From NCBI RefSeq assembly GCF_014635185.1, contig NZ_BMCM01000006.1:1-64000 (forward strand): a stretch of DNA of 64,000 nt, written 5' to 3'. Of the stretch, positions 38,983 to 58,942 are shown piece by piece (the stretch's first letter is position 1; each line of letters opens with the position of its first letter). A program made the position numbers and the translations under genes. Below the pieces are notes generated by a model. It was not told the origin of the DNA. It saw only the letters and a program-made list of their open reading frames with translations, and ran no database searches. Source of the stretch: Microbacterium murale (lineage in GTDB: Bacteria > Actinomycetota > Actinomycetes > Actinomycetales > Microbacteriaceae).

Positions 38983-40283
38983 CCCTCGACGCCCTCCCCC
39001 GCGCCTACGCAACCGTCACAGGCACTGACGCCACATTCATCACGCCTGACGGGCACCATGAACCTATCTCCGCATCGCCCGACGAAGACATCCGTCGCGT
39101 CGTCGTGCAACGCGCGACTGCCGAGGCTCGACGGACGGGCACCGCACTCGAACTCGTCACCTCCGGCGACCGCGGCGAGCACCGTCTGATGGTCAGCGGC
39201 ACCGGTGAACTGACGACCGTGCCCACGACACCGACAGCGGCGTCGACAGTTAAACGGCACCGCGAAGCCTCCGATTGGTCAGCGCCTGTCCCCTCGCACG
39301 CAGTCGAGTCCGACTCCATCCCGAAGCTAACTGATATGGCGAACAAGGAATTTTCCGAGGATCCGCAGCGCGCCTCTTTCATCGTCGCGGACGATTCACT
39401 CGACGACTGGCATCCGATGGGATGGCGGGCAGCTGTATCGTCGATTGGCATTCGCGTTCCTGAGAGCGCGAGCACGCGTCGGCGTCGCGTCGCGGAGATG
39501 AACGTCTCGCGGCACTGGGCCGGGTACCGGGCGATCGCAGTCGCGAACGGCAAGGGCGGGGTTGGAAAGACGATGACAACGGCGATGCTCGCGGCGATGT
39601 TCGCGCGTATCGGCGGTGGCAACGTCCTCGCTTGGGACAATAACGACACTCGTGGCACGCTCGGATGGAGAACCGAGCAAGGCTCCTACGACACGACGGT
39701 CCGCGATCTGCTGACGGCAACGAACGACCTCCTTGCCCCGACTGCCACCGTCTCCGACATCTCCCGGTTCGTGCATCATCAGTCAGCGGACCGCTACGAC
39801 GTGCTGCGGTCGAATCCCGAGCTCCTCGCCACGCACCAGCGCATCGAATCCGCGCAGTTCGACGAATTGATGCGGGTTGCGACCCGGTACTACCGTCTTG
39901 TTGTCTTCGATTCCGGCAACGACGAGTCCGCCGACCGTTGGCTGAGGATGATCGACGGATCGCATCAGCTCGTCGTCCCCACGCTCCCCTCCCCGGAATC
40001 CGCTGAGTCCGCCGCGCTGCTACTCGAAGCACTGCGGGAGCGGGATGAACACTCCGCTCGACTCGCTGAGAATGCCGTCATGGTCGTCACGCAGCCAGAG
40101 ACCGGAGCCCGACGAGTATCGGAGCGAATCGCTGCAGGGTTCAACCATCAGGTGCGTGTCGTAGATACCGTCCCGTTCGACCCAGCACTCAAGAGCGGTC
40201 CGTTGCGGTTCGACGCACTTCGCCCGCACACACGAGACGCCTGGCTCCAGGTTGCGAGCGCTGTCAGCGCCGGAATGGAGTGA
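38979..40283 (+). CDS. ParA/MinD-like ATPase of the transfer operon
   Basis: This is a 434-residue protein. The first ~185 residues have no recognised family. The rest is a deviant Walker A ATPase with VANGKGGVGKTMTTAMLAAM, LAWDNNDTRGTLGW and FDSGNDES. It lies between the VirB4- and VirD4-like genes, so a role in polar placement of the channel or relaxosome is likely. Start overlaps the VirB4-like stop. Confidence 0.78.
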   Translation: MTLDALPRAYATVTGTDATFITPDGHHEPISASPDEDIRRVVVQRATAEARRTGTALELVTSGDRGEHRLMVSGTGELTTVPTTPTAASTVKRHREASDWSAPVPSHAVESDSIPKLTDMANKEFSEDPQRASFIVADDSLDDWHPMGWRAAVSSIGIRVPESASTRRRRVAEMNVSRHWAGYRAIAVANGKGGVGKTMTTAMLAAMFARIGGGNVLAWDNNDTRGTLGWRTEQGSYDTTVRDLLTATNDLLAPTATVSDISRFVHHQSADRYDVLRSNPELLATHQRIESAQFDELMRVATRYYRLVVFDSGNDESADRWLRMIDGSHQLVVPTLPSPESAESAALLLEALRERDEHSARLAENAVMVVTQPETGARRVSERIAAGFNHQVRVVDTVPFDPALKSGPLRFDALRPHTRDAWLQVASAVSAGME

Positions 40284-40296
40284 GGGGAGCATACTC

Positions 40297-42129
40297 ATGA
40301 ACACCGGGTGGGCAGGAAAAGCCGTAGCGGTTGTCATCGCCACGGGGTTCATGCTGAGTCTCGGCGCGGCCTTCATCGCGGAGTCGGTCTCGACCCTCGT
40401 TTGCGGCGAGCGCCCCCGACCCGACAGCCTGTTCGCTGGTCTTCTGCTCGCGATTACCGGCGACCCGTCTCCGTACACCTCGGCGTGCCCAATGCCCGTT
40501 TGGGAAATCCGTGCGCTCGATCTCCTCTTGTTGCTCATACTGATCTCCGCCGCAATCATGATCCTGGTGTTCTACCGGCGATACCTATCCTCCGACCGTG
40601 CGTTCATCGTAGATCTGCGCAACCGTCCAGGATTCGCAACAAACTCTGAGGTGCGTCAGCATCTGTCTGCCCGGGCTGTACTTCGTCGCGCGCGTCAACT
40701 CCGCCCAGATGTTGACAAGCCACAGCCGACGGATGTCGGGTGGCGGGTGGGACGATCCCGTGGCCGCGACGTTTATGTATCGATCGAGGACTCCGTCGCT
40801 CTCGAAGGTCCGCCCCGCTCAGGCAAGGGATATCGCGTCCTCATCTCCGCGATCCTTGACTGGTCCGGTCCGCTCATCACCACGTCCACCACGAACGACA
40901 ACCTGACGGCAACGATGAGGTTGAGGCAAGAGCGCGGCGAGGTTCATGTGTTCGACCCGCAGGGGCTGTCCGGTGTGCGGCATCCGTTACGGGTGAGTCC
41001 GCTCGCCGGGTGCGAGGACCCACTAGTCGCGATGCAACGCGGCAACGCCATCATCACGGGAACCGCGCTCGGATCGTCTACGACGAACGGAGAGTGGGCC
41101 CAAGCATCCGGTGTGGTTCTCGGCAGGCTCCTGCACGCCGCAGCCATAGGCGACCGCACGATCGCGGACGTGTATGACTGGGGATCTAGTCCGGCGTTCG
41201 CCCGCACGGCCGTGGACGTACTGCGCTCCGACGGAGCACCAGGGTGGGGCGACAACCTCGAGGCGACGATCAGTGGAGATGAGAAACTTGTCTCGTCGAT
41301 CTGGTTCGGCGTTCAAGGGGCTGTCGCCCCACTCGCTGTTCCCCAGATCCGTGACTCACTGATGCCCCGGCGCGGCGACTCGATCCTCGACCCCCGTGAG
41401 TTTCTGGACGGGGCGAACTCGTTGTATTTGATCGGGTCCTCATCCGGGGCTTCCGCGATGGGTGGATTCCTCGGCGCCCTCCTCGACGACATCGTCGACG
41501 TCGCAAGGGACCGCGCCCTCGCCTCCCCAGGCTCCCGGCTGACGCACCCGCTCGGGCTGATCCTCGACGAGATCGCGAACATCTTCCGCTGGGATGCGCT
41601 ACCGCGGACGATGGCCGACGGTGGTGGCCGCGGGATCTGCACTTTCGTCGTCCTGCAGGCACTCTCCCAAGCAGAGACGGCCTGGTCCCGTGCCGAAGCC
41701 GACACCATCTGGGCCGCCGCCACTGCAAAAGTTCTCCTCGGCGGCGCATCCCACGTCGCGCACCTTCGCGACGTCGAAGCGCTGCTTGGCACGCGCGACG
41801 CCCGCCGCACCGAACGCTCCTGGAACACTGCGCAGCACGGTTACCACACCAGTGAACGGCAAGACCGGCTGCCGCTCATGTCCGTCGACGAAATCCGCCG
41901 CATGCCCGAAACCCTCGGCCTACTGGCATACCGCAACCGCCGCGGCGTGCTTCTGGACCTCGCCGGCTGGGACGCGCGACGAGATGCGAAAACGATTCAA
42001 CACGGCAAATTCAGCACCGAAGCTGAGCAACGTACCGTCTTCGACGCTGCGAAGCGACACACATCACCGCCACCGCCGCTTGATGTCGAGGACACGGAGC
42101 TTTCCGCTGAGGTGGTGAATGACGAATGA
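40297..42129 (+). CDS. TraG/VirD4-type coupling protein
   Basis: This is a 610-residue protein with two N-terminal helices (about 8-28 and 75-95). Walker A is EGPPRSGKGYRVL near residue 175 and Walker B is LGLILDEIANI near residue 425, followed by the sensor region FVVLQALSQAE. It links the relaxase-DNA complex to the secretion channel. GAGGGGAG precedes the ATG. Confidence 0.9.
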   Translation: MNTGWAGKAVAVVIATGFMLSLGAAFIAESVSTLVCGERPRPDSLFAGLLLAITGDPSPYTSACPMPVWEIRALDLLLLLILISAAIMILVFYRRYLSSDRAFIVDLRNRPGFATNSEVRQHLSARAVLRRARQLRPDVDKPQPTDVGWRVGRSRGRDVYVSIEDSVALEGPPRSGKGYRVLISAILDWSGPLITTSTTNDNLTATMRLRQERGEVHVFDPQGLSGVRHPLRVSPLAGCEDPLVAMQRGNAIITGTALGSSTTNGEWAQASGVVLGRLLHAAAIGDRTIADVYDWGSSPAFARTAVDVLRSDGAPGWGDNLEATISGDEKLVSSIWFGVQGAVAPLAVPQIRDSLMPRRGDSILDPREFLDGANSLYLIGSSSGASAMGGFLGALLDDIVDVARDRALASPGSRLTHPLGLILDEIANIFRWDALPRTMADGGGRGICTFVVLQALSQAETAWSRAEADTIWAAATAKVLLGGASHVAHLRDVEALLGTRDARRTERSWNTAQHGYHTSERQDRLPLMSVDEIRRMPETLGLLAYRNRRGVLLDLAGWDARRDAKTIQHGKFSTEAEQRTVFDAAKRHTSPPPPLDVEDTELSAEVVNDE

Positions 42130-44757: not shown

Positions 44758-45018
44758 TCATTCCGCGGGCGAGGTACCCGCCACGGTGCCGTAGACGAAC
44801 GCTGTCAAGGCTTCCCTGTGACGTGTGGGATCAACCACGGTTCGTCCGATCAGATCCCGCAGTTCAGCGCTCACGTGCTCTGCGGCGAGATCATCCAGGC
44901 ACCAGTCGATGTCTTCATTGAGCTGATACCCCGGGGAGTCTGCAGGCAGTGCCGGGTAGTACATAATCGCGATCGTTCCGACCCGCTGCAGCAACGCATC
45001 GGCATCGTCGAGTTTCAT
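44758..45018 (-). CDS. Hypothetical small protein downstream of the relaxase
   Basis: This is an 86-residue acidic, helical protein with no cysteine-rich or membrane segment. ATGA overlap with the relaxase stop and a four-base gap to the repeat-protein gene place it in one operon. Possibly a relaxosome accessory; no family is recognised. Confidence 0.6.
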   Translation of the reverse strand: MKLDDADALLQRVGTIAIMYYPALPADSPGYQLNEDIDWCLDDLAAEHVSAELRDLIGRTVVDPTRHREALTAFVYGTVAGTSPAE

Positions 45019-48000
45019 CGGATTCCTCCTTGGTGAGATGCTGGCGCCTGGACGACCAGCTCGCGGTGGTGGGTTCGTTCGTCAATTGGTTCAAGACGTG
45101 ACATCCGGTCATCAGCGAGAAATGGCGCCAAGCCGCGCGCTTCGATTGCCAGGGCCGCGTGTAGCCGTTCCTCCAATTGTGCCCGCGCGGTGCCGTCGAG
45201 TGCAGCACGTTCTTCGTCGCCGAACCGACGGGCCCGGCCGTGGTGCCGCGCCTCGCGGTCTGCCGCATCAGCATCCGCGGTGAGCAACACGGTTCGAGCA
45301 GCACAGAGCCAGTCCGTGAGATCGGGCGAGTCGGGCGACGTGGAGATGCCAGGTGCGACCTCTGGTCTGGCGAGTGCAGCGGTCTCGTCGCGTGCCGACC
45401 TGCGCAAGTCGCGGTGCGCTTCTCGGATGGCGTCCTCCACATCAGGTTCGGGGAGTCCCCGCATCATCGCTCCTGCGAGTTCTTCGGTCGCCCCAGCGTC
45501 GGAGGGGGCAACGACGACGACTTCGTTGTGCCGTCTACCGCGGGTCAAGCCCACGTACAGCCCCGATGCATCGACGTCCGGGCCGACGAGCGAGATGTCG
45601 GTCGTCTCCCCCTGGATGCCGTGCACAGTCGTGGCATACGCCAAGTGAACGTAGTCCGCAGCGTACTCTCGGGACACAACTCTTGTGTCGGCAGCATCGT
45701 CGATTCGCTGGAGCTCCAAGGCTGTGGGGCCGATCCGCGTAACCATCCAAATCGCGCGATTCTCCACACCTGCATCGCGGTCGTTTCGGCGGGTCTGGAC
45801 AACGTCTCCTTCTAGGAGCCGCTGCTCCTCCCCGCCGACCGCGATCCGGTGCGCACGGATCTGGCCGCGGATGACGCGCTCCTGTTGAATCGCGTCATTG
45901 ATGTACGACGCTTCCTCATTCGTCGCAGTGACGATCGCGACCGACCGGCCGCGATCGTGATGGTAGAAATACCCGTGGACGAGCGCCGCGCGCGCAGCAT
46001 CAAGATCGCCCACGCGTCGCACATGATTCTGTTCTTGAAGTGTCGCAGCGGTATCCAACGCGTCAAAGATGGTTGCGGGTGAGCGTACCCGCAATGTGAG
46101 CGCCGCGTACTCCGGGTCTTCGAAACGATGCACGCCGGTCAGTTCGACGGCGTGCCCGGCACGGCGTTCGGCAAGAGCCATCGCCCCGGAATGACCGATA
46201 GGGCTCGCCTGGTGGGGATCACCAACCAGGGCGATACCAGCTCCCGTTTCGATGGCCAGTTGTGTCAGCGCGTCAGCAGCGTTGAGATCTAGCATCCCCG
46301 CCTCGTCAACGACAACGCGGACGCGTGGGTCGAGGGAGTGGTGTCGCGGACCCAGATAAGTGCTACCCGTGGAAGGGTCTCGTTGCCCGGGGCACAGTCT
46401 CCACCACAGATCGGCACCAGCGTCATCCTTCCCCCACCGCCAGCCGTGGTCAGCGAGCAGCGCATGGATGCTGGTACCAGTTGCACCGATCTCGCGACTC
46501 GCAACCGCCGCTGCCTTTCGCGTCGGCGCCACGATCAGCAGGCGCCGCTTCTGCACTTCTAGCGCCGAGCGCGCAACGCGCAACATCGTGGTTTTCCCCG
46601 TCCCCGCCGGCCCTGTGACTGTCACGAGCCGATCCAAACCCGCGACTACGCCGGCGGCGAGGCGCTGGGAAGGATCCAGTTCGCCACCCGCGAGCATCCG
46701 TCCCGCGGTTAGATCTACCCCAGGGTTCACTGAGTTCGGTATTGGCGCGTTACTCAGGCAGACGAGTCGCGCTCCGAGATCAACCTTGAGACGCGCGAAC
46801 TCGTGCGTGACAAGCGCCTTCACATGTTGCGGTTTATCCAGGTCATCGGGGATCAGATCTCGTGTGTGTGCAAGAGCCCGCGCGGTGACGTCGTCGACGA
46901 GGTACTGCAGCTGGTCACGGCCGCCGACTACTCCCGACGACGCTACTGCACGACCGGCACCAGCGCGGATGTCCAGCACGCTGAATCGTCCGTTGCTCGC
47001 TCGGGATCGTTGATCCGCATCCGCCACCGCCCGCCGCGCGAGGAGGTCGTGATCCACCCAGTCGAGCCTCGACCCCGGCATGGTCAGCGGCTGACGCGGG
47101 ATGAGGACTTTGGGGTCAATACGCAGCAGTTCCTGTGTCGTCAGATCGGACCATTCGTCCTCGTCCACCTCACTCGGCTTGCCCGGGCGGTTGATCGCCC
47201 ACGAATGCCGATCAATCATTTGCACGACGTCCGAACTCGGAGTCTCGCCCGGATGGCTGACCCTCCACTGTTCGAACAGCACGGCCCTGTTCGCTTCGAT
47301 CTGATTCGACCGACGCGACACCGCACGGACGAGATGGGCGAGCTGCGAGATCTCCCCGTCCGCATTCAAGTCGTAACCGTGAGCTGCGAGTGCTGCGATC
47401 CACTCTGGGTCCGTGCGGGCTGCGAGATCTCCCTCGGCATTGACGATGTTCTGCACCCGCATTGCTACCCGCGAGTCGACGTTCGACCACTGGCCGTCTA
47501 TGCCGCGAACGCGCACGTTCAGCCACAGGTGACGATGAATGTGAGGATCCAGCGCGCGCGATCGACGATGCTGAAGTTCGACTACTTCCAGTCGCGCGAG
47601 CCTCTCCCGGATGCGGCCGCCGGCGCCCCGCCGAGCATTCAGCTCGCGCTCCCAGGTCATGATGATCCGGTCTCGGAGGCGATCCTGCAATGCCTCGTAC
47701 GCACGCTCAAGCTCAGGGTGCAAGAGCGTGGCGATGCTGAACGACTTCCACGCGTTGATCGTGCTGTCAAGAATCAGATCCGACGCAGGAGACGCAAGCT
47801 CTCGCCCTCGGCGCTCCCCCGTCTCGGGATCACGCCCGTCCACCCACTCTGTCAGCTGCCGCGCGTCCAGCTCGTCGCGAGCGGTCACGCCGGCTTCGAT
47901 GCTGAACCGCGAGACAGTCGAGCCGTCGACACGACTGTATGCTTCCAGCGCATCGACCCCAATAGCGCGCATGTGTGAGTCGCAGGACCCCCGGAACGCG

Positions 48001-48068
48001 TAGGCCATCGCCTGCCGGACTCCCTGTGAGCCCGTACCCCGTTTCCAACGTTCGAGTCCTCCTCGCAC
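45015..48068 (-). CDS. MobF-type relaxase-helicase (TraA-like)
   Basis: This is a 1017-residue protein. The relaxase part (about 1-300) has a Tyr in ALEAYSRVDG and the metal-binding His cluster LDPHIHRHLWLNVRV. The helicase part has Walker A VTGPAGTGKTTMLRV near residue 485, VRVVVDEAGML, LVGDPHQASPIGHSG and TTVHGIQGETTDISL. It nicks oriT and unwinds the transferred strand. The oriT is not identified; the intervals around 48.07-48.37 kb are candidates. The N-terminal start is uncertain. Confidence 0.85.
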   Translation of the reverse strand: MRGGLERWKRGTGSQGVRQAMAYAFRGSCDSHMRAIGVDALEAYSRVDGSTVSRFSIEAGVTARDELDARQLTEWVDGRDPETGERRGRELASPASDLILDSTINAWKSFSIATLLHPELERAYEALQDRLRDRIIMTWERELNARRGAGGRIRERLARLEVVELQHRRSRALDPHIHRHLWLNVRVRGIDGQWSNVDSRVAMRVQNIVNAEGDLAARTDPEWIAALAAHGYDLNADGEISQLAHLVRAVSRRSNQIEANRAVLFEQWRVSHPGETPSSDVVQMIDRHSWAINRPGKPSEVDEDEWSDLTTQELLRIDPKVLIPRQPLTMPGSRLDWVDHDLLARRAVADADQRSRASNGRFSVLDIRAGAGRAVASSGVVGGRDQLQYLVDDVTARALAHTRDLIPDDLDKPQHVKALVTHEFARLKVDLGARLVCLSNAPIPNSVNPGVDLTAGRMLAGGELDPSQRLAAGVVAGLDRLVTVTGPAGTGKTTMLRVARSALEVQKRRLLIVAPTRKAAAVASREIGATGTSIHALLADHGWRWGKDDAGADLWWRLCPGQRDPSTGSTYLGPRHHSLDPRVRVVVDEAGMLDLNAADALTQLAIETGAGIALVGDPHQASPIGHSGAMALAERRAGHAVELTGVHRFEDPEYAALTLRVRSPATIFDALDTAATLQEQNHVRRVGDLDAARAALVHGYFYHHDRGRSVAIVTATNEEASYINDAIQQERVIRGQIRAHRIAVGGEEQRLLEGDVVQTRRNDRDAGVENRAIWMVTRIGPTALELQRIDDAADTRVVSREYAADYVHLAYATTVHGIQGETTDISLVGPDVDASGLYVGLTRGRRHNEVVVVAPSDAGATEELAGAMMRGLPEPDVEDAIREAHRDLRRSARDETAALARPEVAPGISTSPDSPDLTDWLCAARTVLLTADADAADREARHHGRARRFGDEERAALDGTARAQLEERLHAALAIEARGLAPFLADDRMSRLEPIDERTHHRELVVQAPASHQGGIR

Positions 48069-48368: not shown

Positions 48369-49286
48369 CTAAAAGTCTGTACCGGTGAGCGGTGCGTCCT
48401 CAGATTCGTCGACGATCTTGACCTGTGCAGGCACTCGCCATTGCCCCGACGACACCATGTCTCGGCAGCCGGTTGGCTCGTGCGTCAGGCAGACTTCTAC
48501 CAGCTGGTTGCCGCGTCTCCTTTCGCCCACAACGGTCCACCCTTGGTACAGCCGAAGCAGCGATGGATCCGTCGGAAGGGTGATGTAGATTTTAGCCCCT
48601 AGCCGCCGACAGCGTTCGGCTTCCGCTGCGAGCCGCCGGTGATCGGACGGAGAGAAAAGCAGTGAGCCGTATCGCCTAAAGGGATAGTCACCTGATGCAC
48701 CATACGGCGGATCCAGAAATACAACGTCGCCCCCGGTGACGCGCGCCATCAGATCCAGATAGTCCACGTGCTCAACCGATACTCGTCGCATCACCTCTTC
48801 GAGCTCACCCATGCCTTTTGCGAAGGTGTCCAAGTTGAGGCGGCCGCCGCCGCCGTACGGCACGTTGTAACGCCCCTTCTGGTTGGTTCGATACAAGCCG
48901 AAATAACCGGTTCGATTGAGGAAAGCGAATCGAGCCGCGCGTTCGACATCGGTCGGCGGCGACCAGTCGCGTACTTGCAAGTATGTGTCGCGGTCATCGT
49001 GCAAGCTTCTGAGAATCGCGACGATGTCTTGGCCGTGCGTTGCGGACTGACCGAAAAAATTTACGAGCTCGCCATTAGTGTCAGCGCCCATAGAAGATGT
49101 CGCCGCGATCCCGAAAGAAACGCTCCCCCCGCCGAAAAAAGGTTCCACGATGCGTGGAATGTGCGTCGGCAAGAATTGCTTCAGGAGTGGTACGAGTTTG
49201 CGTTTGCCTCCGGCCCACCTCAACGGCGTGACACACGTCGCGGACGACTGACCCACTACAGGCGCACCCTGACTACCGTGTACCAT
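48369..49286 (-). CDS. D12-class N6-adenine DNA methyltransferase
   Basis: This is a 305-residue Dam-family enzyme. TPLRWAGGKRKLVPLL and VEPFFGGGSV bind S-adenosylmethionine; ADTNGELVNFF, FLNRTGYFGLYRTN and KGRYNVPYGG are D12 hallmarks, and the catalytic motif is VFLDPPYGASGDYPF. It methylates adenine in a short target. It overlaps the unknown gene upstream by 31 bases, so it is part of the same operon, where it could mark self DNA or act as a regulator. Confidence 0.92.
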   Translation of the reverse strand: MVHGSQGAPVVGQSSATCVTPLRWAGGKRKLVPLLKQFLPTHIPRIVEPFFGGGSVSFGIAATSSMGADTNGELVNFFGQSATHGQDIVAILRSLHDDRDTYLQVRDWSPPTDVERAARFAFLNRTGYFGLYRTNQKGRYNVPYGGGGRLNLDTFAKGMGELEEVMRRVSVEHVDYLDLMARVTGGDVVFLDPPYGASGDYPFRRYGSLLFSPSDHRRLAAEAERCRRLGAKIYITLPTDPSLLRLYQGWTVVGERRRGNQLVEVCLTHEPTGCRDMVSSGQWRVPAQVKIVDESEDAPLTGTDF

Positions 49287-50251
49287 GCGATCTCCGCGGC
49301 GCTCGACTCAAGACGCCGCTCAGGATCGGAATAATAGACCTGCGCGACGGGATGCTCGATAGCATACAGTGCCATCGCCAACGCAGCTACCTTCGTGCCG
49401 CACAACACGAAGCTCACCGCAGCGGGGTCCTCCGGGTCGGCGATTATCGGCGCGAGCGCGCGCTCTAGGACTTCAAGGCATCCGGACATGTCGTTCGAGG
49501 GAAGGTAGAGCACACCATCTTTATCAACGAGGTATTCTTCCGCGACCCCCGCGCTCGCGCGCCGTGCGGCGCGCTCGTGTTGCTCATCGATACCTGTAGA
49601 CAGCGCGACCAAGACTCTGTCAGGTTCCAATGCATTGACGAGGCGGCGTGTGTGCTCGCCTTCGAAGCCCCCAGCGATCACCATCACCGAACGCGCGCTC
49701 GGGGACGCGCCATCCCCCAGGGTCGGAATCGCCCGCGGTATCCACGTGCCTTCGGTGAAGGCGGCAGGGCCAGAGGTTGTCTCATACCTGCGCGCGGCGG
49801 TGTAAACAGCCGAGTATGTATCTATAAGACCAGTCCGCGCGCCGAACCCCAGCAAACTCAGCGCAACATAACGAGGCACGCTATTCAGATCGATCGCGAT
49901 GCGAAGAGGGCGACCAAGACTTTCGTAGATCGAGCTGACCGAACGACGAACGGCCAGCCACGCTGAGACGAGGTCAGCCGAGTCGACATCCAAAACAATC
50001 GGAGGGTTATCAGCTACGGCCATCATTGTTTCGAAGAGCACGACTTCGTGCTCATCCACACGCCCAGATACCCCCCGGTTTTGATACCGAAGCAAGAGAG
50101 CGTACGGAACCGCGGAAGGCAATGAGATCTCAGTCAAAGCCATGCACCGGCGATCCCAGGTTGCTGCCCCGATAAGCAAGTCGACGTCACGCACGCCGAC
50201 TTGATTTGCCTCTACCGAGAGTTCCTGGCTGACGGATCGCAGACTAGCCAC
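49256..50251 (-). CDS. Unrecognised protein of the ATPase/methylase operon
   Basis: This is a 331-residue soluble protein. DVDLLIGAATWDRRC near the N-terminus and RIAIDLNSVPRYVALSLLGFG near residue 125 suggest an alpha/beta (Rossmann-like) domain. A second one follows, with VMVIAGGFEGEHTRRLVNALEPD and FVLCGTKVAALAMALYAI. No catalytic motif is recognised. Its start overlaps the ATPase stop by eight bases, and its end overlaps the methylase gene. It may be the effector or specificity part. Confidence 0.75.
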   Translation of the reverse strand: MASLRSVSQELSVEANQVGVRDVDLLIGAATWDRRCMALTEISLPSAVPYALLLRYQNRGVSGRVDEHEVVLFETMMAVADNPPIVLDVDSADLVSAWLAVRRSVSSIYESLGRPLRIAIDLNSVPRYVALSLLGFGARTGLIDTYSAVYTAARRYETTSGPAAFTEGTWIPRAIPTLGDGASPSARSVMVIAGGFEGEHTRRLVNALEPDRVLVALSTGIDEQHERAARRASAGVAEEYLVDKDGVLYLPSNDMSGCLEVLERALAPIIADPEDPAAVSFVLCGTKVAALAMALYAIEHPVAQVYYSDPERRLESSAAEIAWYTVVRVRL

Positions 50252-52163
50252 GACTGGTTCCTTCCCATTCTCCCAAACCGGGCAAAGTCGGATGACCCTG
50301 TCGTGCTGATGGTTGGGTCGCTACGGAGGAAAGCCACTTGCTTGGCGCCGCCGCAGAATCCGTCATGGCCCGCCCAACTAAATCAAATGTGAGCGTCGTA
50401 TCGTACTGAGGCTTCCAATAACTAAAACCAAAGTGTCGCGCGAACGAGCGGTTGACTCGGCAACTAAGTCGCCCCTCCGTTATTTCAAGGTCTGAGATGT
50501 ATCCGTAGCTGGCGGCCTGCTCGAGCAAGCGAATCAACGTAGCGTAGCTAGCGCCCGCCTCAATTGGTCGACCAGGGTCGCGGACAACGATCCGATTCGC
50601 GTTGGGTCTGCCCATGCGCTTGTCGCCGTAAAAGTCACTCCTATGCGAAACTTCCCCAAACAACTTCACGACCGCACTCGCTACAACATGATCAACCAGA
50701 GTTGCGGACATCGAGTCAAGCTTCTGCCTTCCGAGCCTGTCGAGGGCCGCGTCCTGCAATCTGTAATCCAGCCGCGGGGCGGCCAAGAATTTGGCGACGT
50801 CCTTATCCGTCATCGACTCAGGCTCATCGCGGCTCCACAATTCCATCGCGTATCGAAGAAAGCGCACGAAATCGCGAACGCTGTTGTCCGCCATGTTTAC
50901 AGCGATTCGCCACCCTGCGTACGTTGGACGATCGATTCCTAGCGAACCCAGAAGGTGCAGGTAACCAGCGATCTTTTTCTTGCGGTACCCGACGCTTTCA
51001 TCTCGTCTCGACTGCGCCGTGTTTGCACGAATTGCGCCAGCTTGTTCTAGATGTTCCCGGATCGGACTTCCCCCGCGCGGCCGTCGGCGCATGCGCTCGG
51101 CCGCGCGCCGCTCCGAGCGGCTGATTGCGATTTCGAATAGTTCGTCGAGATCCGGATTGCCAAGAAAGCTCTTCAAGTCGAACCGAGGGCGGGCGACACC
51201 GACGAGCTCTAGGCGCGCACGCATCACGCCATTAAGCAAATCGACCATTTGCTCCGGTGGCCGGTCGTCGAGATCGACGATCTCTCGATCATCGATCGAC
51301 AGCGACGCACCTGCAGCCCGCGTGGAGCTCCCGAGCGAGTTCAGCACTGAGACGGCGAGATACACAGGGGAGTCGGTTTCGCGAATCAGGGTTCTGAGCG
51401 CAACTGCCCAGTCTTCCGAGAGAAACTCACCTTCGTCCATGCAAATGCGGAAAGTCCAGAGGCCTTCTCCACCAAGCCTGGAGACGAATGTTGCAAGCGC
51501 GGAGAATACCCTTGATGAAACAACACCAAGATCTAATAGGTCTAGACGCGTCAGCGCATCTTCCGGGCTCGGGAACTCTATAGCAGCGGCGTCTCGCAGA
51601 TAGCGCATAATGCCGCGCGCGATTCTATCGATGTCGACGATGCTGATCGTCTCGTTGGTGGTGACAGGGCCGACTTTCAGCGCCTTTGGGACCCACTCCC
51701 ACACCATTTGAGCGACTGGGCCCAGATCAGCGAGCTCCTCGCCGTAGGACGCAAAGCGGCGTGCGTCATTGAGCCCCCGAATAGCGGCACATATCTCGAC
51801 GATCCAGCTGGCGCGCAGATAGCTGGAGATGATTGCGTAGCGCACCTGGTCATTGCTCGAACGTAGCCAGATATCGAGCATGTCGACGGGAAGGAGCTTG
51901 ATCTGCAGGAAACAACCCACGGTATGGTCAGCGAATGGTTCATCACCGAGTGCGCTTCGCAAGTGCGAATTGGTTAACCGTTCACGCCAATCGAGAGCAC
52001 GAAGAAGTGTCGTCTTGCCCGTGCCGCGGTGTCCTTTTAGTACAACATGTTTGGCTAGGCGGGATAATCGTTGATATGCGGGAGTCGCCAGGTAGTAGAA
52101 GTGCTGGATGCGGTCTTGCTCCCAGCGATCGTCGAAGAAATGAGCGAGCGTCTTAGTTGTCAA
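50244..52163 (-). CDS. AAA/STAND-like ATPase (ORC-CDC6-like)
   Basis: This is a 639-residue protein. Walker A is VLKGHRGTGKTTLLRAL (Lys about residue 50) and Walker B is FRICMDEGEFLSE near residue 250; then LAVSVLNSL-type sensor region. The overall pattern resembles bacterial ORC-CDC6/STAND-like ATPases of defence loci. The C-terminal ~300 residues contain winged-helix-like and unknown segments. The start overlaps the phosphoesterase stop by four bases. It probably acts as the sensor or motor of the operon. Confidence 0.85.
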   Translation of the reverse strand: MTTKTLAHFFDDRWEQDRIQHFYYLATPAYQRLSRLAKHVVLKGHRGTGKTTLLRALDWRERLTNSHLRSALGDEPFADHTVGCFLQIKLLPVDMLDIWLRSSNDQVRYAIISSYLRASWIVEICAAIRGLNDARRFASYGEELADLGPVAQMVWEWVPKALKVGPVTTNETISIVDIDRIARGIMRYLRDAAAIEFPSPEDALTRLDLLDLGVVSSRVFSALATFVSRLGGEGLWTFRICMDEGEFLSEDWAVALRTLIRETDSPVYLAVSVLNSLGSSTRAAGASLSIDDREIVDLDDRPPEQMVDLLNGVMRARLELVGVARPRFDLKSFLGNPDLDELFEIAISRSERRAAERMRRRPRGGSPIREHLEQAGAIRANTAQSRRDESVGYRKKKIAGYLHLLGSLGIDRPTYAGWRIAVNMADNSVRDFVRFLRYAMELWSRDEPESMTDKDVAKFLAAPRLDYRLQDAALDRLGRQKLDSMSATLVDHVVASAVVKLFGEVSHRSDFYGDKRMGRPNANRIVVRDPGRPIEAGASYATLIRLLEQAASYGYISDLEITEGRLSCRVNRSFARHFGFSYWKPQYDTTLTFDLVGRAMTDSAAAPSKWLSSVATQPSARQGHPTLPGLGEWEGTSRG

Positions 52164-53506
52164 ATGAGGTACCCCGCATCCGCGAAAGATGTTCCTGGAA
52201 CGGTGTTGCGACGCAAGACCCCTGTCCAGCAGAGCGTCTCGACCAGGGATTCCACTTCGTCGGCAGGCATTGGCGGACTGAACCGGCTCCCCTCTGCCAC
52301 TAGCTCACCGCCGGTCGCGGCGCTATTCTGCACTACAAATGCAAGAAGGTTCCGTTGGGCTGCCGTGAGCGATGGCCGTCGAGCTAAGGAGACCTCGATT
52401 AGGTCCGGTTCCAGCGATATTGTCTGCTCACCTTGGCTGATTCGGTACTTCTCGACGCGGATCCCAAGGGGACGGCCCTGAGCGTCGAACTTGATCGCGA
52501 TCTTATTGAATCCGGAGCGCAGTTCTGGCGCCGCGATGATGACCGCACGGTCATGCAGAGGCAGAATGTCATTGGCCTTCGGAAAATCGACGATCTCGAC
52601 GACATGCTGATGGATGTGTCCGTGCAGATAGAGCACCGAGCGTCCGAGCTTCGTCAGCTGTCGCCTAGCTTGACCCGCGTTCGCCATCTCGGTATAAGGA
52701 TTGAGGCGCGGAGTATGCTGCGGGAGCAACCCATGGTGTGCGAGCAACACGGGAACGACTGTCCCGTTCAGATGCCCCCAGCAAGCAGCGATTCCTTGGA
52801 GTTCATCGGGGTGGAGGAGCGGAACGTCAAGGACCTCTTCTAGGGCCACGCCTGGGGAGTGTCGCTCGATCGCCGCATCCAGGTCCAAGCCATCTAGTTC
52901 GTTGAGCGCCGCCTCCAGTACTAGGTCCTTCGCCCCAGCAGGCAGATCCCGCCTCGTCGCGCCCACACCACGACAAGTGTTGACGCTGACGACGCTGACC
53001 CCTCCGCCATCAGGCAGGGCGACCGTAGTCTCACGATGGCTTCTTGTGAACACGTCACCCAAGCCCTCATGTACGCAGATCTGCGCAAGCACTTCAAAAC
53101 GATCCAGGTCTTCGAAACTGACGAACGGCTGGTCTCCTTTGAAGTTGACATCATGGTTGCCCGGAACCACGTGCAACCGGTCAGGGCCTATCTTTTCGAC
53201 TAGACGGCTGTCCCCCAATACTTCAGCAAGATAGCGAACGCCGCCGACGAATCCGTCACGGTCACCACGCGATGTGATGTCACCACACACGGCGACGATG
53301 GCCCCTGGGGAGGCGTTAAGCTGGTCGACTATCGCACGATGCACCTCGCGCGGAATGGGATATCCGAGCGTTGCGTCAAGTTGGCCCGGTGTGGATGAGT
53401 CATGAGTATCTACATCAGTGGTTGCGGCCTGAAACTCGCAAAAATGTAGGTCACCAAGCTGAAGAATTATCTGCTCATGGGGCACAGTCGCGGTCACTCC
53501 TGTCAC
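52160..53506 (-). CDS. Metallophosphoesterase with C-terminal helical domain
   Basis: This is a 448-residue calcineurin-like phosphoesterase. Metal ligands are GDLHF (Asp19, His21), CGDIT (Asp76), PGNHD (Asn117, His118), LAHHG near residue 255 and HGHIHQH. About residues 370-448 form a small winged-helix-like domain (LTAAQRNLLAFVVQNS). It may cleave nucleic acid or a nucleotide signal. It is the first gene of the overlapping four-gene set. GTG start; later GTG codons are possible. Confidence 0.88.
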   Translation of the reverse strand: MTGVTATVPHEQIILQLGDLHFCEFQAATTDVDTHDSSTPGQLDATLGYPIPREVHRAIVDQLNASPGAIVAVCGDITSRGDRDGFVGGVRYLAEVLGDSRLVEKIGPDRLHVVPGNHDVNFKGDQPFVSFEDLDRFEVLAQICVHEGLGDVFTRSHRETTVALPDGGGVSVVSVNTCRGVGATRRDLPAGAKDLVLEAALNELDGLDLDAAIERHSPGVALEEVLDVPLLHPDELQGIAACWGHLNGTVVPVLLAHHGLLPQHTPRLNPYTEMANAGQARRQLTKLGRSVLYLHGHIHQHVVEIVDFPKANDILPLHDRAVIIAAPELRSGFNKIAIKFDAQGRPLGIRVEKYRISQGEQTISLEPDLIEVSLARRPSLTAAQRNLLAFVVQNSAATGGELVAEGSRFSPPMPADEVESLVETLCWTGVLRRNTVPGTSFADAGYLI

Positions 53507-53676: not shown

Positions 53677-53934
53677 ATGCCAAGATACCCCTCGCCATGG
53701 CGAGTCAATGATGCAGTGCTTCACGACGCCCTGCGCGATGAATTCCGCTCAGCCATCGCCGCGGTGATGGCCGCTGCCGATGACTCCGGCGACGAGGCGG
53801 TCGGCCTGATTCGGCAGTTGCGGTCCGACATATACGACACGGACGGCTTTGACCGCAGCGGGGTGGCGTCGCACCTCGCTGCCGGGAGATCGCCGACTCG
53901 AGCGACCCCGGAGCGGTCGCGTGACCGACGGTGA
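53677..53934 (+). CDS. Putative antitoxin of the zeta-like pair
   Basis: This is an 85-residue protein with a short helical N-terminal part (VNDAVLHDALRDEFRSAIAA), an acidic middle and a basic Arg-rich tail. A good AGGAG precedes the ATG, and the stop overlaps the zeta-like gene by 14 bases, the usual layout of an antitoxin. No family is named; role from position. Confidence 0.6.
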   Translation: MPRYPSPWRVNDAVLHDALRDEFRSAIAAVMAAADDSGDEAVGLIRQLRSDIYDTDGFDRSGVASHLAAGRSPTRATPERSRDRR

Positions 53935-54919
53935 GTCAGTAGATGCCAGACGGGTGCAGGATGTCATCCTGCGGTCGTTGTTCGATGGCGCCCGTCCGAG
54001 CGAGACCCCGACTTTCGTGCTTCTGGCGGGTGCGCCGGCCGCTGGCACGGGACGTGCGATCGCGCGGCTGCGGCGCGAGCATGACGGGGACCTCGTCCCG
54101 GTCTCGATCGAGGATCTGCAGGCCTTCCACTCGAGGTACTTGGACACGCAGTTCCGGCAGTCCGCTGCGGGTCGGAAGGAGCTGTCGCAGCTCGCGGCGT
54201 CCTGGCTGCAGGCCTGCATCAGCCATACGCGCGAGAACGGGTACTCGTTGCTTCTTGAGGGCGAGTTCCGGACTCCAGACACGGCGCTGGGCGTAGCGCG
54301 ACGGTTTGCCGATTCCGGGTATGACGTGCACGTCGTCACTGTCGCTGCGCGCGATGATCAAAGCCTGCTCACCGCCACGTCGCGTGGTCTACGCCGCATG
54401 CAGGAAGGACAACCGGCGGAATTTGTCACCCCTGCAGAGAACGAGCAGAGCATGCGGGACGTGACCGCGCTGATCGTGGCTGCCGCTGACAGCCCGTTGG
54501 TCCGGCGCGTGTCCGTGCTCAACCAGCACGGTGTGACAGTTTTCGATGCCGAACGGTCAGAATCTGGGATGCTGAGCGGAGCATCCGTCGCGCTGAGCAC
54601 TTCACGATCAGAGGCGATGAGCGCTCTCGAGGCGACGCAGTGGTTGAGCGAGCTTCGCCACATGACCGAATACGCACGGTCGCTGCGAACCCTCCCGACC
54701 CCTGCTATCGAGTCCCTCATCGAGCTGCATGAGATGGCGATCCGACGCGTCGTGCCGGAGCTGCCCGTGCCGCCCGGTTCCGAGGTCGCGAGGATCCAGC
54801 AACAGAAGCTGGCAACAGATCTCGCTGCACTCAAACGCATGCGGGTGCAGCCAGAGGTCATCGATGTGGCCGCCCCTACCGTCACACCCGCGGAGTCTCG
54901 GCCTTCGATCTCTCGGTGA
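53921..54919 (+). CDS. Zeta-toxin-family protein with altered P-loop
   Basis: This is a 332-residue protein from GTG 53921. LLAGAPAAGTGRAIARL stands where zeta toxins and related kinases have a GxxxxGK[ST] P-loop, so the key Lys is replaced. ISIEDLQAFH-like segment (VSIEDLQAFHSRYL), LLEGEFRTPDT and DRSEXX-like VVTVAARDDQSL follow as in zeta proteins. The C-terminus has a long helical part. It may be an inactive toxin or use a different nucleotide mode. Confidence 0.75.
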   Translation: MTDGESVDARRVQDVILRSLFDGARPSETPTFVLLAGAPAAGTGRAIARLRREHDGDLVPVSIEDLQAFHSRYLDTQFRQSAAGRKELSQLAASWLQACISHTRENGYSLLLEGEFRTPDTALGVARRFADSGYDVHVVTVAARDDQSLLTATSRGLRRMQEGQPAEFVTPAENEQSMRDVTALIVAAADSPLVRRVSVLNQHGVTVFDAERSESGMLSGASVALSTSRSEAMSALEATQWLSELRHMTEYARSLRTLPTPAIESLIELHEMAIRRVVPELPVPPGSEVARIQQQKLATDLAALKRMRVQPEVIDVAAPTVTPAESRPSISR

Positions 54920-56899: not shown

Positions 56900-57490
56900 G
56901 TGAAGGTCGACGTGAAGAATCCTGACGGCACAGCAATGACGTGGCACTCCGCCACACAGCCCGTCGGGTCCGCGCTGCGCATTGCCCCTGAGTTCGTTGC
57001 CTCCGTGGTCGACGAGGACGCTGGAGTCGAAACCACCATCGAGGCGCACTACAACACGGACGAGGGGCGCTACATCGTCACCACGATCCTCAACCGCGCA
57101 ACCCGACCGGACTTCGACCACCAGGCGCTACGGCGCACCGCATCAGCCGCCATCGTGCAGGCCGCCGTCCCTAACTGCATCGCCGTGCGCCTGAGCGACG
57201 AACCAGACTCCACCTGGACGACGATCGCGGACCTCACCTCCACCGAGGGACGCATCATCCCGCCATGGATGGCAGCCACCGCGGTGAAACGCGGCATGAA
57301 GGACGAACGCATGGAGGTCGTAGAGATCCTTTACGGCGCCGCCGCCCTTGCTGGTACCCCGCCCGTACGCGCCGTGCAAGTGGAACTCGACATCCCCCAC
57401 CGCACTGCATCCGACTGGATCAAAAAGGCCCGCGACGCAGGGCGCCTGGAAGGCATGTCGTACACCGTCGGCCGCCAGGCCGATGGGTAG
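56900..57490 (+). CDS. Hypothetical protein upstream of integrase
   Basis: This is a 196-residue protein. The N-terminal ~130 residues are of unknown fold, and the C-terminal part RAVQVELDIPHRTASDWIKKAR looks like a helix-turn-helix. It is translationally coupled to the integrase (8-base overlap). It may be a regulator of integration. GTG start. Confidence 0.7.
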   Translation: MKVDVKNPDGTAMTWHSATQPVGSALRIAPEFVASVVDEDAGVETTIEAHYNTDEGRYIVTTILNRATRPDFDHQALRRTASAAIVQAAVPNCIAVRLSDEPDSTWTTIADLTSTEGRIIPPWMAATAVKRGMKDERMEVVEILYGAAALAGTPPVRAVQVELDIPHRTASDWIKKARDAGRLEGMSYTVGRQADG

Positions 57491-58619
57491 CATCGAGCCG
57501 TACGAGACTACTTCAGGCCGACGGTACCGGATCCGATACCGTACGCCCGAGAATCGACAGACGGACAAGCGCGGATTTCGCACCAAGCGCGAAGCAGCCG
57601 AGTACCTGACTTCTGTCGAGACCCAGAAGTCCCAAGGGGACTACATCGCCCCCAGCAGGTCAAGAATCGATATCAACACCTGGGCCATCACCTGGCAGCA
57701 GACACTCGCCCACTTGAAGCCAACGACGCGCTCTGGATACATCTACAGCCTGAACCGCCATGTGCTTCCACGATGGGGCAGGATCCACTTAGCCGATATC
57801 TCCCATACTGACTTGCAAGTGTGGGCCGGCGAGCTCTCCGAAACGCTAGCGGCTTCAAGCGCGAGGCAAGTGTTCCACGTCATGAACAGCATGCTCACGC
57901 TCGCCGTACGCGACAGAAGGCTGACCCGAAATCCATCAACCGAGGTCAAGCTCCCGAAGGTGACGAAAGCGAAGCGCGGGTATCTCGACCACGCACAAGT
58001 GCGCGAACTTGTGCGTGCCGCAGGACCAGACGGAGACATCATCGCCACGCTCGCCTATACCGGGCTTCGATGGGGTGAGCTTGCCGCTCTTACCGTCGAT
58101 AGCGTCGATCTCGGGAGAAGACGACTCTCGATCACTCAGAGCGTGAGCGAGGTCGGTGGCGCACTCGTCTGGGGCACTCCGAAAACCAACCGATCACGCG
58201 TCGTCGGGTTCCCCGCGTTTCTGACTGAATCCATCCAAGCTCGCATGAGCGGCAAGCAACCGACAGACCAAGTGTTTACATCTCACGACGGTGCCGTCCT
58301 ACGCAACAATAATTTCCGACGCCGCAGCTTCGCCCCCGCGCTCGAGCACGTGCGGGAGATCGATCCCACGTTCCCTGTGATCACTCCCCACGATCTTCGA
58401 CACACAGCAGCCAGCCTCGCCGTCTCTGCCGGCGCGAACGTCAAGGCTGTGCAACGGATGCTCGGGCACGCTTCGGCAGCCATGACGCTCGACGTCTACG
58501 CAGACCTGTTCGATGACGACCTCAACGCAGTCTCAACAGCGCTCGATCGCGACGCAAGCGCCCACTTCGGCGACGGAAGTTGGAACAGGCAAGAACCAAC
58601 CCAAGCTGGTCTGCGATAG
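57483..58619 (+). CDS. int: Tyrosine integrase
   Basis: This is a 378-residue phage-type integrase. An arm-binding N-terminal domain (about 1-50), core-binding domain (about 60-155) and catalytic domain follow. Catalytic residues are Arg in TGLRWGELAAL, His-x-x-Arg in HDLRHTAAS, His in MLGHASAAMT and Tyr in LDVYADLF. It reads toward the tRNA-Met 3' end 130 bases away, the usual position relative to the attachment site. Confidence 0.95.
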   Translation: MGSIEPYETTSGRRYRIRYRTPENRQTDKRGFRTKREAAEYLTSVETQKSQGDYIAPSRSRIDINTWAITWQQTLAHLKPTTRSGYIYSLNRHVLPRWGRIHLADISHTDLQVWAGELSETLAASSARQVFHVMNSMLTLAVRDRRLTRNPSTEVKLPKVTKAKRGYLDHAQVRELVRAAGPDGDIIATLAYTGLRWGELAALTVDSVDLGRRRLSITQSVSEVGGALVWGTPKTNRSRVVGFPAFLTESIQARMSGKQPTDQVFTSHDGAVLRNNNFRRRSFAPALEHVREIDPTFPVITPHDLRHTAASLAVSAGANVKAVQRMLGHASAAMTLDVYADLFDDDLNAVSTALDRDASAHFGDGSWNRQEPTQAGLR

Positions 58620-58720
58620 ACCAGAAAAGACCTGCTCAAACGGACCGGTTCCGAATGGTTTGTGGGCAAAATGTGGGCAGAACGGCGATTTTGGGCTGAC
58701 AGCACCACACCAGCAAAAGC

Positions 58721-58747
58721 AAAAACCCCCGTCGACCGGGGGTTTTT
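58721..58747. terminator. Rho-independent terminator
   Basis: AAAAACCCCC and GGGGGTTTTT with a 7-base loop form a perfect hairpin with T- and A-runs on both sides. It lies just 3' of tRNA-Met and 100 bases after the integrase stop, so it can serve both strands. Confidence 0.9.
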
Positions 58748-58752
58748 ATCTG

Positions 58753-58826
58753 TAGCAGGAGCGGGGCTTGAACCCGCGACCTCACGATTATGAGTCGTGC
58801 GCTCTCACCAACTGAGCTACCCTGCC
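58753..58826 (-). tRNA. tRNA-Met (anticodon CAT)
   Basis: The 5' acceptor GGCAGGG, D arm GCTCAG, anticodon arm with CTCATAA, T arm GCGGG-TTCAAGC-CCCGC and acceptor TCCTGCT are complete. CCA is not encoded. Elongator-type. It is the likely attachment gene of the element. Confidence 0.92.
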
Positions 58827-58870
58827 GCACGGCATCCCCGCCCATGAAGAACATGAAAGCGAATGCTGCG

Positions 58871-58942
<72 letters not shown>

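What the first reader, a model, noticed from the sequence alone, without database searches (positions are those of the whole stretch)
48369..53506. Four-gene overlapping operon: phosphoesterase, AAA ATPase, unknown protein, D12 adenine methylase
The sequence shows a calcineurin-type phosphoesterase, an ORC-CDC6/STAND-like ATPase, an unrecognised two-domain protein and a Dam-type methylase encoded with 4-, 8- and 31-base overlaps between a relaxase operon and a zeta pair. Defence loci combine sensor ATPases, nucleic-acid or nucleotide hydrolases and self-marking methylases, often as ICE cargo. I do not recognise this exact combination as a named system. Anti-phage action with methyl-based self-recognition is inference.
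Basis: partly seen in the sequence, partly recalled or inferred. Interest (0 to 1): 0.88.

Follow-up and report, generated by a model that had tools for sequence, protein, structure and literature searches.

The report
Mobile phosphoesterase–ATPase–CARF–methylase defence-like operon
Four tightly packed bacterial genes on a conjugative-type element turn out to be a recurring, widely scattered gene set that looks like an undescribed immune system: a phosphate-cutting enzyme, a DNA-style ATPase, a likely nucleotide-sensing protein and, in one of its two forms, a DNA-marking enzyme.

Summary
In detail: four same-strand ORFs with 4-, 8- and 31-base overlaps. The set recurs. A genome scan seeded by the phosphoesterase (MPE) gave 40 loci; the ATPase follows the MPE in 37 of 40, and all three core genes are present in 33 of 40. 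Reciprocal MPE and ATPase scans of viral contigs hit the same 3 contigs. The Dam-type methylase is linked in 11 of 12 non-alphaproteobacterial loci and 0 of 21 alphaproteobacterial ones, whose genomes all hold a strong N6_N4_Mtase match, probably CcrM; one deep tree split could also explain this. All 30 MPEs match the anti-phage DS-9 model, far below its cut-off where checked. Best reading: a mobile, probably antiviral, NTPase/CARF-gated phosphoesterase module with methylation as self mark; function is inferred. ThyX is a recurrent extra gene, and one distant relative has PRTase-CE in the MPE position. No named system was found in the libraries and papers searched.

The parts
52160..53506 (-). 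Calcineurin-like metallophosphoesterase (MPE), 448 aa, first gene of the operon
   Evidence: PF00149 E 5.6e-8; D19, H21, D76, N117, H118, H257, H297, H299 in 30 of 30 rows (their role as metal ligands is recalled from the superfamily motif); NCBIfam DS9_1 E 8e-12 but 44.7 bits against a cut-off of 420
50244..52163 (-). ORC-CDC6-like P-loop ATPase, 639 aa (TTG start, 4-base overlap with the MPE)
   Evidence: PF24389 103.4 bits, cut-off 27, 30 of 30 rows; Walker A G44xRGxGK50T51 and D243 invariant
49256..50251 (-). CARF6-family protein, 331 aa (8-base overlap with the ATPase); C-terminal part holds the invariant G285-x-K287
   Evidence: PADLOC CARF6 models, best E 6.2e-9; at least 26 of 31 rows match a CARF6 model; GxK 31 of 31
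48369..49286 (-). Dam-family D12 DNA adenine methyltransferase, 305 aa (31-base overlap); gene of the linked subtype
   Evidence: TIGR00571 above cut-off; closest solved chain DpnII methylase 2dpm E 1.3e-27; linked in 11 of 12 complete non-alphaproteobacterial scan loci
53849..54919 (+). Context: zeta toxin (85-aa upstream ORF 53677-53934 without Pfam match)
   Evidence: PF06414 E 7.1e-22
45015..48068 (-). Context: TrwC-type relaxase-helicase
   Evidence: TrwC PF08751 E 7.8e-30, AAA_30 E 9.1e-37
40252..42129 (+). Context: type IV coupling protein
   Evidence: TraG-D_C E 5.5e-27
57348..58619 (+). Context: tyrosine integrase beside tRNA-Met 58752-58826 (-)
   Evidence: Phage_integrase E 3.3e-22; ARAGORN

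Best explanation
A mobile, probably anti-phage or anti-plasmid defence operon. The ORC-CDC6-like ATPase and the CARF protein are the sensing and gating part. The metallophosphoesterase is the effector, activated when the ATPase engages foreign DNA or its replication and the CARF protein binds a nucleotide ligand. The Dam-type methylase marks the host's DNA so that it is spared. In Alphaproteobacteria, where no methylase is linked to the operon, the resident CcrM-type adenine methylase may supply the mark. My pick for the effector's substrate is the phosphodiester bonds of unmarked DNA (restriction-like, as in the SbcD/Mre11 phosphoesterase-ATPase pairs). Shown here: the unit, its order, co-inheritance, active-site conservation, the CARF6 match, the relation to a defensive phosphoesterase family, and the methylase distribution. 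Inferred: all activities, the trigger, the ligand, the substrate and the role of methylation.
For: Unit: all three core genes in 33 of 40 scan loci, same strand; closest possible starts lie -16 to +5 bases from the preceding stop, except +19 once in L020. ATPase scan and MPE scan of viral contigs gave the same 3 contigs, each with MPE-ATPase-CARF. The 30 listed plasmid MPE records (35 in all) are all among the 34 ATPase records (compared by eye). Pairwise distances of core proteins correlate at r 0.84-0.94, methylase with core 0.67-0.78. Catalytic residues invariant. CARF6 models match at least 26 of 31 rows. All 30 MPE rows match the DS9_1 anti-phage model at E<=1e-3; the DS-8 and DS-9 phosphoesterase residues are needed for defence (PMC13092281, passages). 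Methylase linked in 11 of 12 non-alpha and 0 of 21 alpha complete loci; 21 of 21 alpha genomes have an N6_N4_Mtase at E<=2.8e-63 with open frames of 372-444 aa; the one non-alpha exception, L021, has an unlinked dam-like gene. Rare: 1 of 297 order genomes and 1 of 396 phylum genomes, each time only the window's own. 30 of 34 ATPase-bearing plasmid records are typed conjugative. Some neighbours match defence models: Mrr-type, DpdD, DpdK, PtuA, type IIG.
Against: No activity measured. The methylase/CcrM pattern is nearly one split on the ATPase tree (2 changes), so ancestry alone may explain it; 6 of 21 alpha genomes also hold an unlinked D12 methylase over the cut-off. In 3 of 12 linked methylases motif IV departs from DPPY. 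No SMODS or Cas10-palm match in the window's genome, so the CARF ligand is unexplained; the CARF fold was not confirmed by the PDB profile search. The MPE profile is closer to solved Lmo2642 (E 1.7e-8) than to SbcD/Mre11 (E 1.2e-3). ThyX and PRTase-CE partners hint at a nucleotide rather than a DNA target. The neighbour scan had no random-gene control.
Confidence: 0.45

Rival explanations
1. Same defence module, but the phosphoesterase acts on free nucleotides or a nucleotide messenger, so that the cell shuts down by nucleotide depletion; ThyX, where present, restores the thymidylate supply.
For: ThyX is among the nearest two genes (ORFs of 100 aa or more) on one side of the operon in 5 of 33 complete loci (L013, L014, L015, L017, L037), in three lineages, and follows it in plasmid L003. 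4 of those 5 genomes have ThyA, and in those 4 the linked ThyX is the only ThyX found. In the distant relative L055 a PRTase-CE gene stands before ATPase-CARF-ThyX. The closest solved profile match is Lmo2642 (that it is a phosphodiesterase is recalled).
Against: Linkage to DNA methylases (Dam here, C5 in L055) is hard to explain for a pure nucleotide target; ThyX is not among the near neighbours in 28 of 33 loci; L055 is a single case.
Confidence: 0.27
2. The phosphoesterase is the off switch: it destroys the CARF ligand, and the ATPase or the CARF protein is the effector.
For: CARF proteins elsewhere sense cyclic oligonucleotides and are paired with ligand-degrading nucleases (PMC11090510 passages, and general knowledge); 8 of 30 MPE rows match the cAMP phosphodiesterase model PRK11148 at E<=1e-3.
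Against: No killing domain was reported in the ATPase or CARF protein; in DS-8 and DS-9 the phosphoesterase is needed for defence.
Confidence: 0.1
3. Not defence: an ORC/CDC6-like replication, partition or maintenance module of plasmids and integrative elements.
For: Sits between a relaxase gene and zeta/integrase genes here; often on conjugative plasmids; the ATPase is named for replication initiators.
Against: No neighbour family recurs in more than 5 of the 117 neighbour genes scanned, and the commonest is ThyX, not a replication or partition family; the CARF6 and DS-9-related members point to immunity.
Confidence: 0.13

Closest known systems
DS-9 / DS-8 anti-phage metallophosphatases (DefensePredictor, PMC13092281, passages seen)
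   Same: Related metallophosphoesterase domain; DS-8 joins it to a P-loop (NACHT) NTPase
   Different: 44.7 bits against a cut-off of 420 for DS9_1; no HAD partner; here the NTPase is a separate ORC-CDC6-like protein, with CARF and methylase added
CARF6 family (PADLOC models; the name is that of the census of Makarova et al. 2020 as I recall it, paper not held)
   Same: The third protein belongs by profile; one family member matches a CARF6 model at 2.3e-160
   Different: What the census says about its neighbours could not be read here
BREX (PglZ, BrxC ORC/Cdc6 ATPase, PglX/BrxX adenine methylase; PMC12839542, passages)
   Same: Similar functional layout: a phosphatase-fold enzyme (PglZ; fold recalled), an ORC/Cdc6-type ATPase, an adenine methylase
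   Different: No BREX family was reported for the four proteins; only about 5 kb; a CARF protein is present; looks convergent
Pfam ORC-CDC6-like (PF24389) and PRTase-CE (PF24390) families
   Same: The ATPase is PF24389; a PF24390 protein stands beside the same ATPase-CARF pair in L055
   Different: The source publication of these families was not found in the library
Type II restriction-modification, Dam/DpnII methylases
   Same: Dam-family methylase (TIGR00571)
   Different: No restriction-endonuclease domain reported in the operon; ATPase and CARF instead

Membership tests
DS-9 (NCBIfam NF053862) | Equivalog score of at least 420 bits | tested here: not met
   44.7 bits; 30 of 30 rows match at E<=1e-3, best E 1.3e-14
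DS-9 | HAD phosphatase partner gene | tested here: not met
   No HAD match in the four genes
CARF6 proteins (PADLOC) | Match to CARF6 profiles | tested here: met
   E 6.2e-9 over residues 117-310; at least 26 of 31 rows
CARF6 proteins (PADLOC) | CARF fold and ligand binding | tested here: inconclusive
ORC-CDC6-like (PF24389) | Gathering score 27 bits | tested here: met
   103.4 bits
Dam family (TIGR00571) | Cut-off 114.85 bits and motif IV D-P-P-Y | tested here: met
   146.3 bits; window has DPPY; across 12 rows 9 DPPY, 2 DPTY (L010, L017), 1 DAPY (L036)
BREX | PglZ, BrxC, PglX proteins | tested here: not met
   No such Pfam, PADLOC or NCBIfam match reported for the four proteins
Type III CRISPR or CBASS (source of a CARF ligand) | Cas10 or SMODS synthase in the genome | tested here: not met
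   Own genome 0 of 1 for PF18144 and PF22335. Other hosts: SMODS over cut-off in 3 of 33; Cas10-palm over cut-off in 8 of 33, about 26-44 bits, with a model that also rings in E. coli
MADS (mad8) | Match along the protein | tested here: not met
   E 8.3e-4 on P-loop residues 37-65 only
Type II R-M | Cognate endonuclease | tested here: inconclusive
   No known endonuclease family reported in the operon; whether the MPE cuts DNA is not testable here
Anti-phage defence system | Protection in a phage test | not testable with these tools
   Needs the bench

The most novel reading that the evidence does not exclude
A modular immunity family not yet named: a fixed ORC-CDC6-like ATPase plus CARF core, an exchangeable effector slot (metallophosphoesterase or PRTase-CE), a DNA methylase self mark that can be Dam-type or C5-type, carried along or borrowed from the resident cell-cycle methylase CcrM in Alphaproteobacteria, and a ThyX that guards the thymidylate supply. 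It would couple DNA methylation state to nucleotide signalling without any known cyclic-nucleotide synthase.
Probability: 0.2. Interest if true: 0.86.

Novelty: new variant of a known kind. Interest (0 to 1): 0.66.

Why it matters
It joins three themes that are usually separate: phosphoesterase immunity (DS-8/DS-9, whose substrate is unknown), CARF sensing outside CRISPR and CBASS, and methylation-based self marking. The compact operon (about 5 kb) makes the MPE substrate and the non-CRISPR CARF ligand testable, and the alphaproteobacterial subtype gives a test of whether a defence system can rely on the host's own CcrM mark.

Tried and rejected
Rejected: chance ORFs (recurrence in many phyla). 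Rejected: four obligate genes (0 of 21 complete alphaproteobacterial loci carry a linked methylase). Rejected: exact membership in DS-9, BREX, MADS, CBASS or type III CRISPR. Set aside: Cas10-palm matches in 18 of 33 host genomes (8 over the cut-off), because E. coli rings in the same control; I read them as related palm folds such as GGDEF (recalled, not tested), and some could be real Cas10. Led nowhere: window ATPase alone in viral contigs (0 confirmed); an ATPase homologue in phages (no match); the L055 ATPase in plasmids and viral contigs and L055 PRTase-CE in plasmids (no match); PDB searches for the CARF and ATPase families; an attachment repeat for the integrase, none of 15 bases or more in the window; random-genome sampling, only the seed genome each time: 1 of 297, 1 of 396, 1 of 385 (the tool scored only the few best candidates per genome). 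Paper searches found no description; Makarova et al. 2020 on CARF families is not held, so a neighbourhood figure there cannot be excluded.
Full report
OBSERVATION. Pfam gives Metallophos, ORC-CDC6-like (PF24389) and MethyltransfD12 for genes 1, 2 and 4 and nothing for gene 3. PADLOC places gene 3 in the CARF6 family (E 6.2e-9, residues 117-310). The methylase is a Dam-family enzyme above the NCBIfam cut-off, with DpnII methylase as the nearest solved chain (2dpm, E 1.3e-27).

A RECURRING UNIT. Three plasmids found with the single proteins showed MPE next to ATPase (broken in the Sphingobium one), and two of them a third gene alignable with gene 3, with no methylase annotated in the stretch. 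A scan of the species-genome collection with an MPE alignment of four sequences gave 40 loci. ORF calling and iterated profile searches find the ATPase directly after the MPE in 37 of 40 and all three core genes in 33 of 40. Of the other 7: L027 and L044 are cut by contig ends inside the MPE; the MPE frame of L042 stops about 100 bases before a contig end; L009 and L016 are cut inside the ATPase and L043 just after it; L023 has a short ATPase frame (395 aa) and no CARF gene. All members are on one strand. Taking the closest possible start codon, core genes start -16 to +5 bases from the preceding stop except one +19 (L020); the methylase lies -20 to +10 from its neighbour except +52 (L020). 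The scan was seeded by the MPE, so reciprocal tests matter. In viral contigs an ATPase scan and an MPE scan gave the same 3 contigs, each with MPE-ATPase-CARF, one also with the methylase. In plasmids an ATPase query gave 34 records and the window MPE 35; the 30 MPE records listed are all among the 34 (compared by eye; 5 not listed). 19 of the 34 are Agrobacterium records with the same score, so there are few independent cases. Four viewed examples, on Mesorhizobium, Sinorhizobium, Agrobacterium and Ensifer plasmids, keep metallophosphoesterase, ATPase-position gene and a third gene.

CO-INHERITANCE. Pairwise distances correlate at r 0.84-0.94 between the three core proteins (12 to 30 loci) and at 0.67-0.78 between the methylase and the core (12 loci), with at most 2 of 2000 permutations reaching the value. 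The operon travels as one unit, with the methylase somewhat looser.

TWO SUBTYPES. Among the 33 complete scan loci the methylase is linked in 11 of 12 non-alphaproteobacterial ones (after CARF in 10, before the MPE in L017) and in 0 of 21 alphaproteobacterial ones. On the ATPase tree (37 rows, 36 labelled, window and two plasmids included) this is 2 changes against a shuffled mean of 10.2; several branches are long. By record titles the linked group spans Actinomycetota, Bacteroidota, Planctomycetota, Thermodesulfobacteriota, Acidobacteriota, Dormiibacterota, Bacillota, Betaproteobacteria and a Nealsonbacteria MAG; the last has a 9.1 Mb genome, so its label is doubtful, and most of the others are MAGs. 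L021, the non-alpha exception, has a dam-like gene elsewhere in its genome. All 21 alphaproteobacterial genomes have an N6_N4_Mtase match at E<=2.8e-63 with an open frame of 372-444 aa, better than any in the other 13 genomes searched, the window's own included (best 4.4e-56). I read these as CcrM (recalled as near universal in that class; not otherwise tested). 6 of the 21 alpha genomes also have a D12 methylase elsewhere over the cut-off. Borrowed self-marking is thus possible, but ancestry alone would give the same pattern.

ACTIVE SITES. In 30 MPE rows D19, H21, D76, N117, H118, H257, H297 and H299 are invariant. In 30 ATPase rows Walker A (G44, R46, G47, G49, K50, T51) and D243 are invariant. 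In 31 CARF rows R35, Y150, Y156, G195, G285 and K287 are invariant. In 12 methylase rows D192 and Y195 of motif IV are invariant, with DPTY in L010 and L017 and DAPY in L036.

WHY DEFENCE. (1) All 30 MPE rows match the NCBIfam DS9_1 model and 20 the DS8 model; DS-8 and DS-9 are validated anti-phage systems whose phosphoesterase residues are needed (PMC13092281, passages). The window MPE scores far below the cut-offs, so this is kinship only. (2) CARF6 models match at least 26 of 31 rows. (3) Patchy presence: random genome samples found only the seed genome, 1 of 297, 1 of 396 and 1 of 385. (4) Mobile context: relaxase, coupling protein, integrase and tRNA-Met around the window copy, plasmids, and an IMG/VR contig whose other ORFs look to me like phage structural genes (L053, by eye only). 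(5) Neighbours matching defence models: Mrr-type, DpdD, DpdK, PtuA, type IIG (117 neighbour proteins, 54 models at E<=1e-15 of which 25 were shown; no random-gene control). The operon's three 2-kb bins are at 57.5-59.6% G+C, against 62-64% in the 6 kb on either side and 68% at 60-64 kb; this fits later cargo, though values of 59-60% also occur at 2-6 kb and 18-20 kb.

LIGAND AND SUBSTRATE. No SMODS or Cas10-palm match in the window's genome. Among 33 other hosts SMODS is over cut-off in 3 and Cas10-palm in 8 (about 26-44 bits); the latter model also rings in E. coli. The CARF ligand is therefore unknown. The MPE profile matches solved Lmo2642 (E 1.7e-8) and then SbcD/Mre11 (E 1.2e-3). A winged helix at the MPE C-terminus is my guess from the sequence; Pfam reports none.

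EXTRA PARTNERS. ThyX is among the nearest two ORFs of 100 aa or more on one side in 5 of 33 complete loci: L013 after the methylase, L017 overlapping the CARF stop by 4 bases, and L014, L015, L037 after CARF. It also follows the operon in plasmid L003. In plasmid L057 a 447-base thymidylate-synthase gene lies behind an IS66 insertion. In L019's genome ThyX is about 5.4 kb from CARF on the other strand. 4 of the 5 genomes have ThyA, and in these 4 the linked ThyX is the only one found. The three rhizobial cases are probably one event. In the genome of L039 a second contig (L055) holds C5 methylase, PRTase-CE (PF24390), PF24389 ATPase, a CARF-family protein with the GxK kept, and ThyX, in that order on one strand. 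This is one locus; searches for more in plasmids and viral contigs gave none.

MECHANISM. I commit to a methylation-licensed, NTPase- and CARF-gated phosphoesterase system, with unmarked DNA as the likeliest substrate, at 0.45. Nucleotide depletion is at 0.27, element maintenance at 0.13, and MPE as off switch at 0.1. The layout resembles BREX (PglZ, ORC/Cdc6-type BrxC, adenine methylase; PMC12839542, passages), but no BREX family was reported for the four proteins, so this is a resemblance in working parts, not membership.

NOVELTY. Ten paper searches and passages seen in nine papers show no description of this operon. Two gaps remain: the CARF census of 2020 is not held, and the source of PF24389/PF24390 was not found. 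I therefore rate it a new variant of a known kind, not categorically new.

LIMITS. No structure prediction was possible. The set of loci depends on the MPE patterns. MAG labels may be wrong. The functional steps are inference.

Noticed in passing
L013:9903-10826, L017:12195-12974, L014:13164-14102, L015:12420-13391, L037:12410-13384, L003:9177-10115: A flavin-dependent thymidylate synthase (ThyX) sits next to the operon in several lineages; 4 of the 5 scan genomes also have ThyA.
   Followed up: partly
L055:747-6972 (minus strand): A distant variant operon: C5 methylase, PRTase-CE, ORC-CDC6-like ATPase, CARF-like protein, ThyX.
   Followed up: partly
L057:8785-12091 and L061:683-1129: IS66 insertion between the CARF-position gene and a short ThyX gene on a Mesorhizobium plasmid, with Mov34/ThiF genes upstream of the operon.
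   Followed up: no
L023:9258-10445 and L002:5842-7365: Decayed copies with a shortened ATPase frame; no CARF gene found in either.
   Followed up: no
window 57348-58942: Tyrosine integrase beside tRNA-Met and tRNA-Thr; no matching attachment repeat of 15 bases or more inside the window.
   Followed up: partly
window 53677-54919: Zeta toxin with an 85-aa upstream ORF lacking any Pfam match, a possible new antitoxin.
   Followed up: no
L056:2892-4175: 427-aa protein without a Pfam match next to a ThyX that has no copy of the operon within the 9 kb fetched.
   Followed up: no
L041 (G692): The contig labelled Nealsonbacteria lies in a 9.1 Mb genome with 15 N6_N4_Mtase matches, so the MAG label is doubtful.
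   Followed up: no
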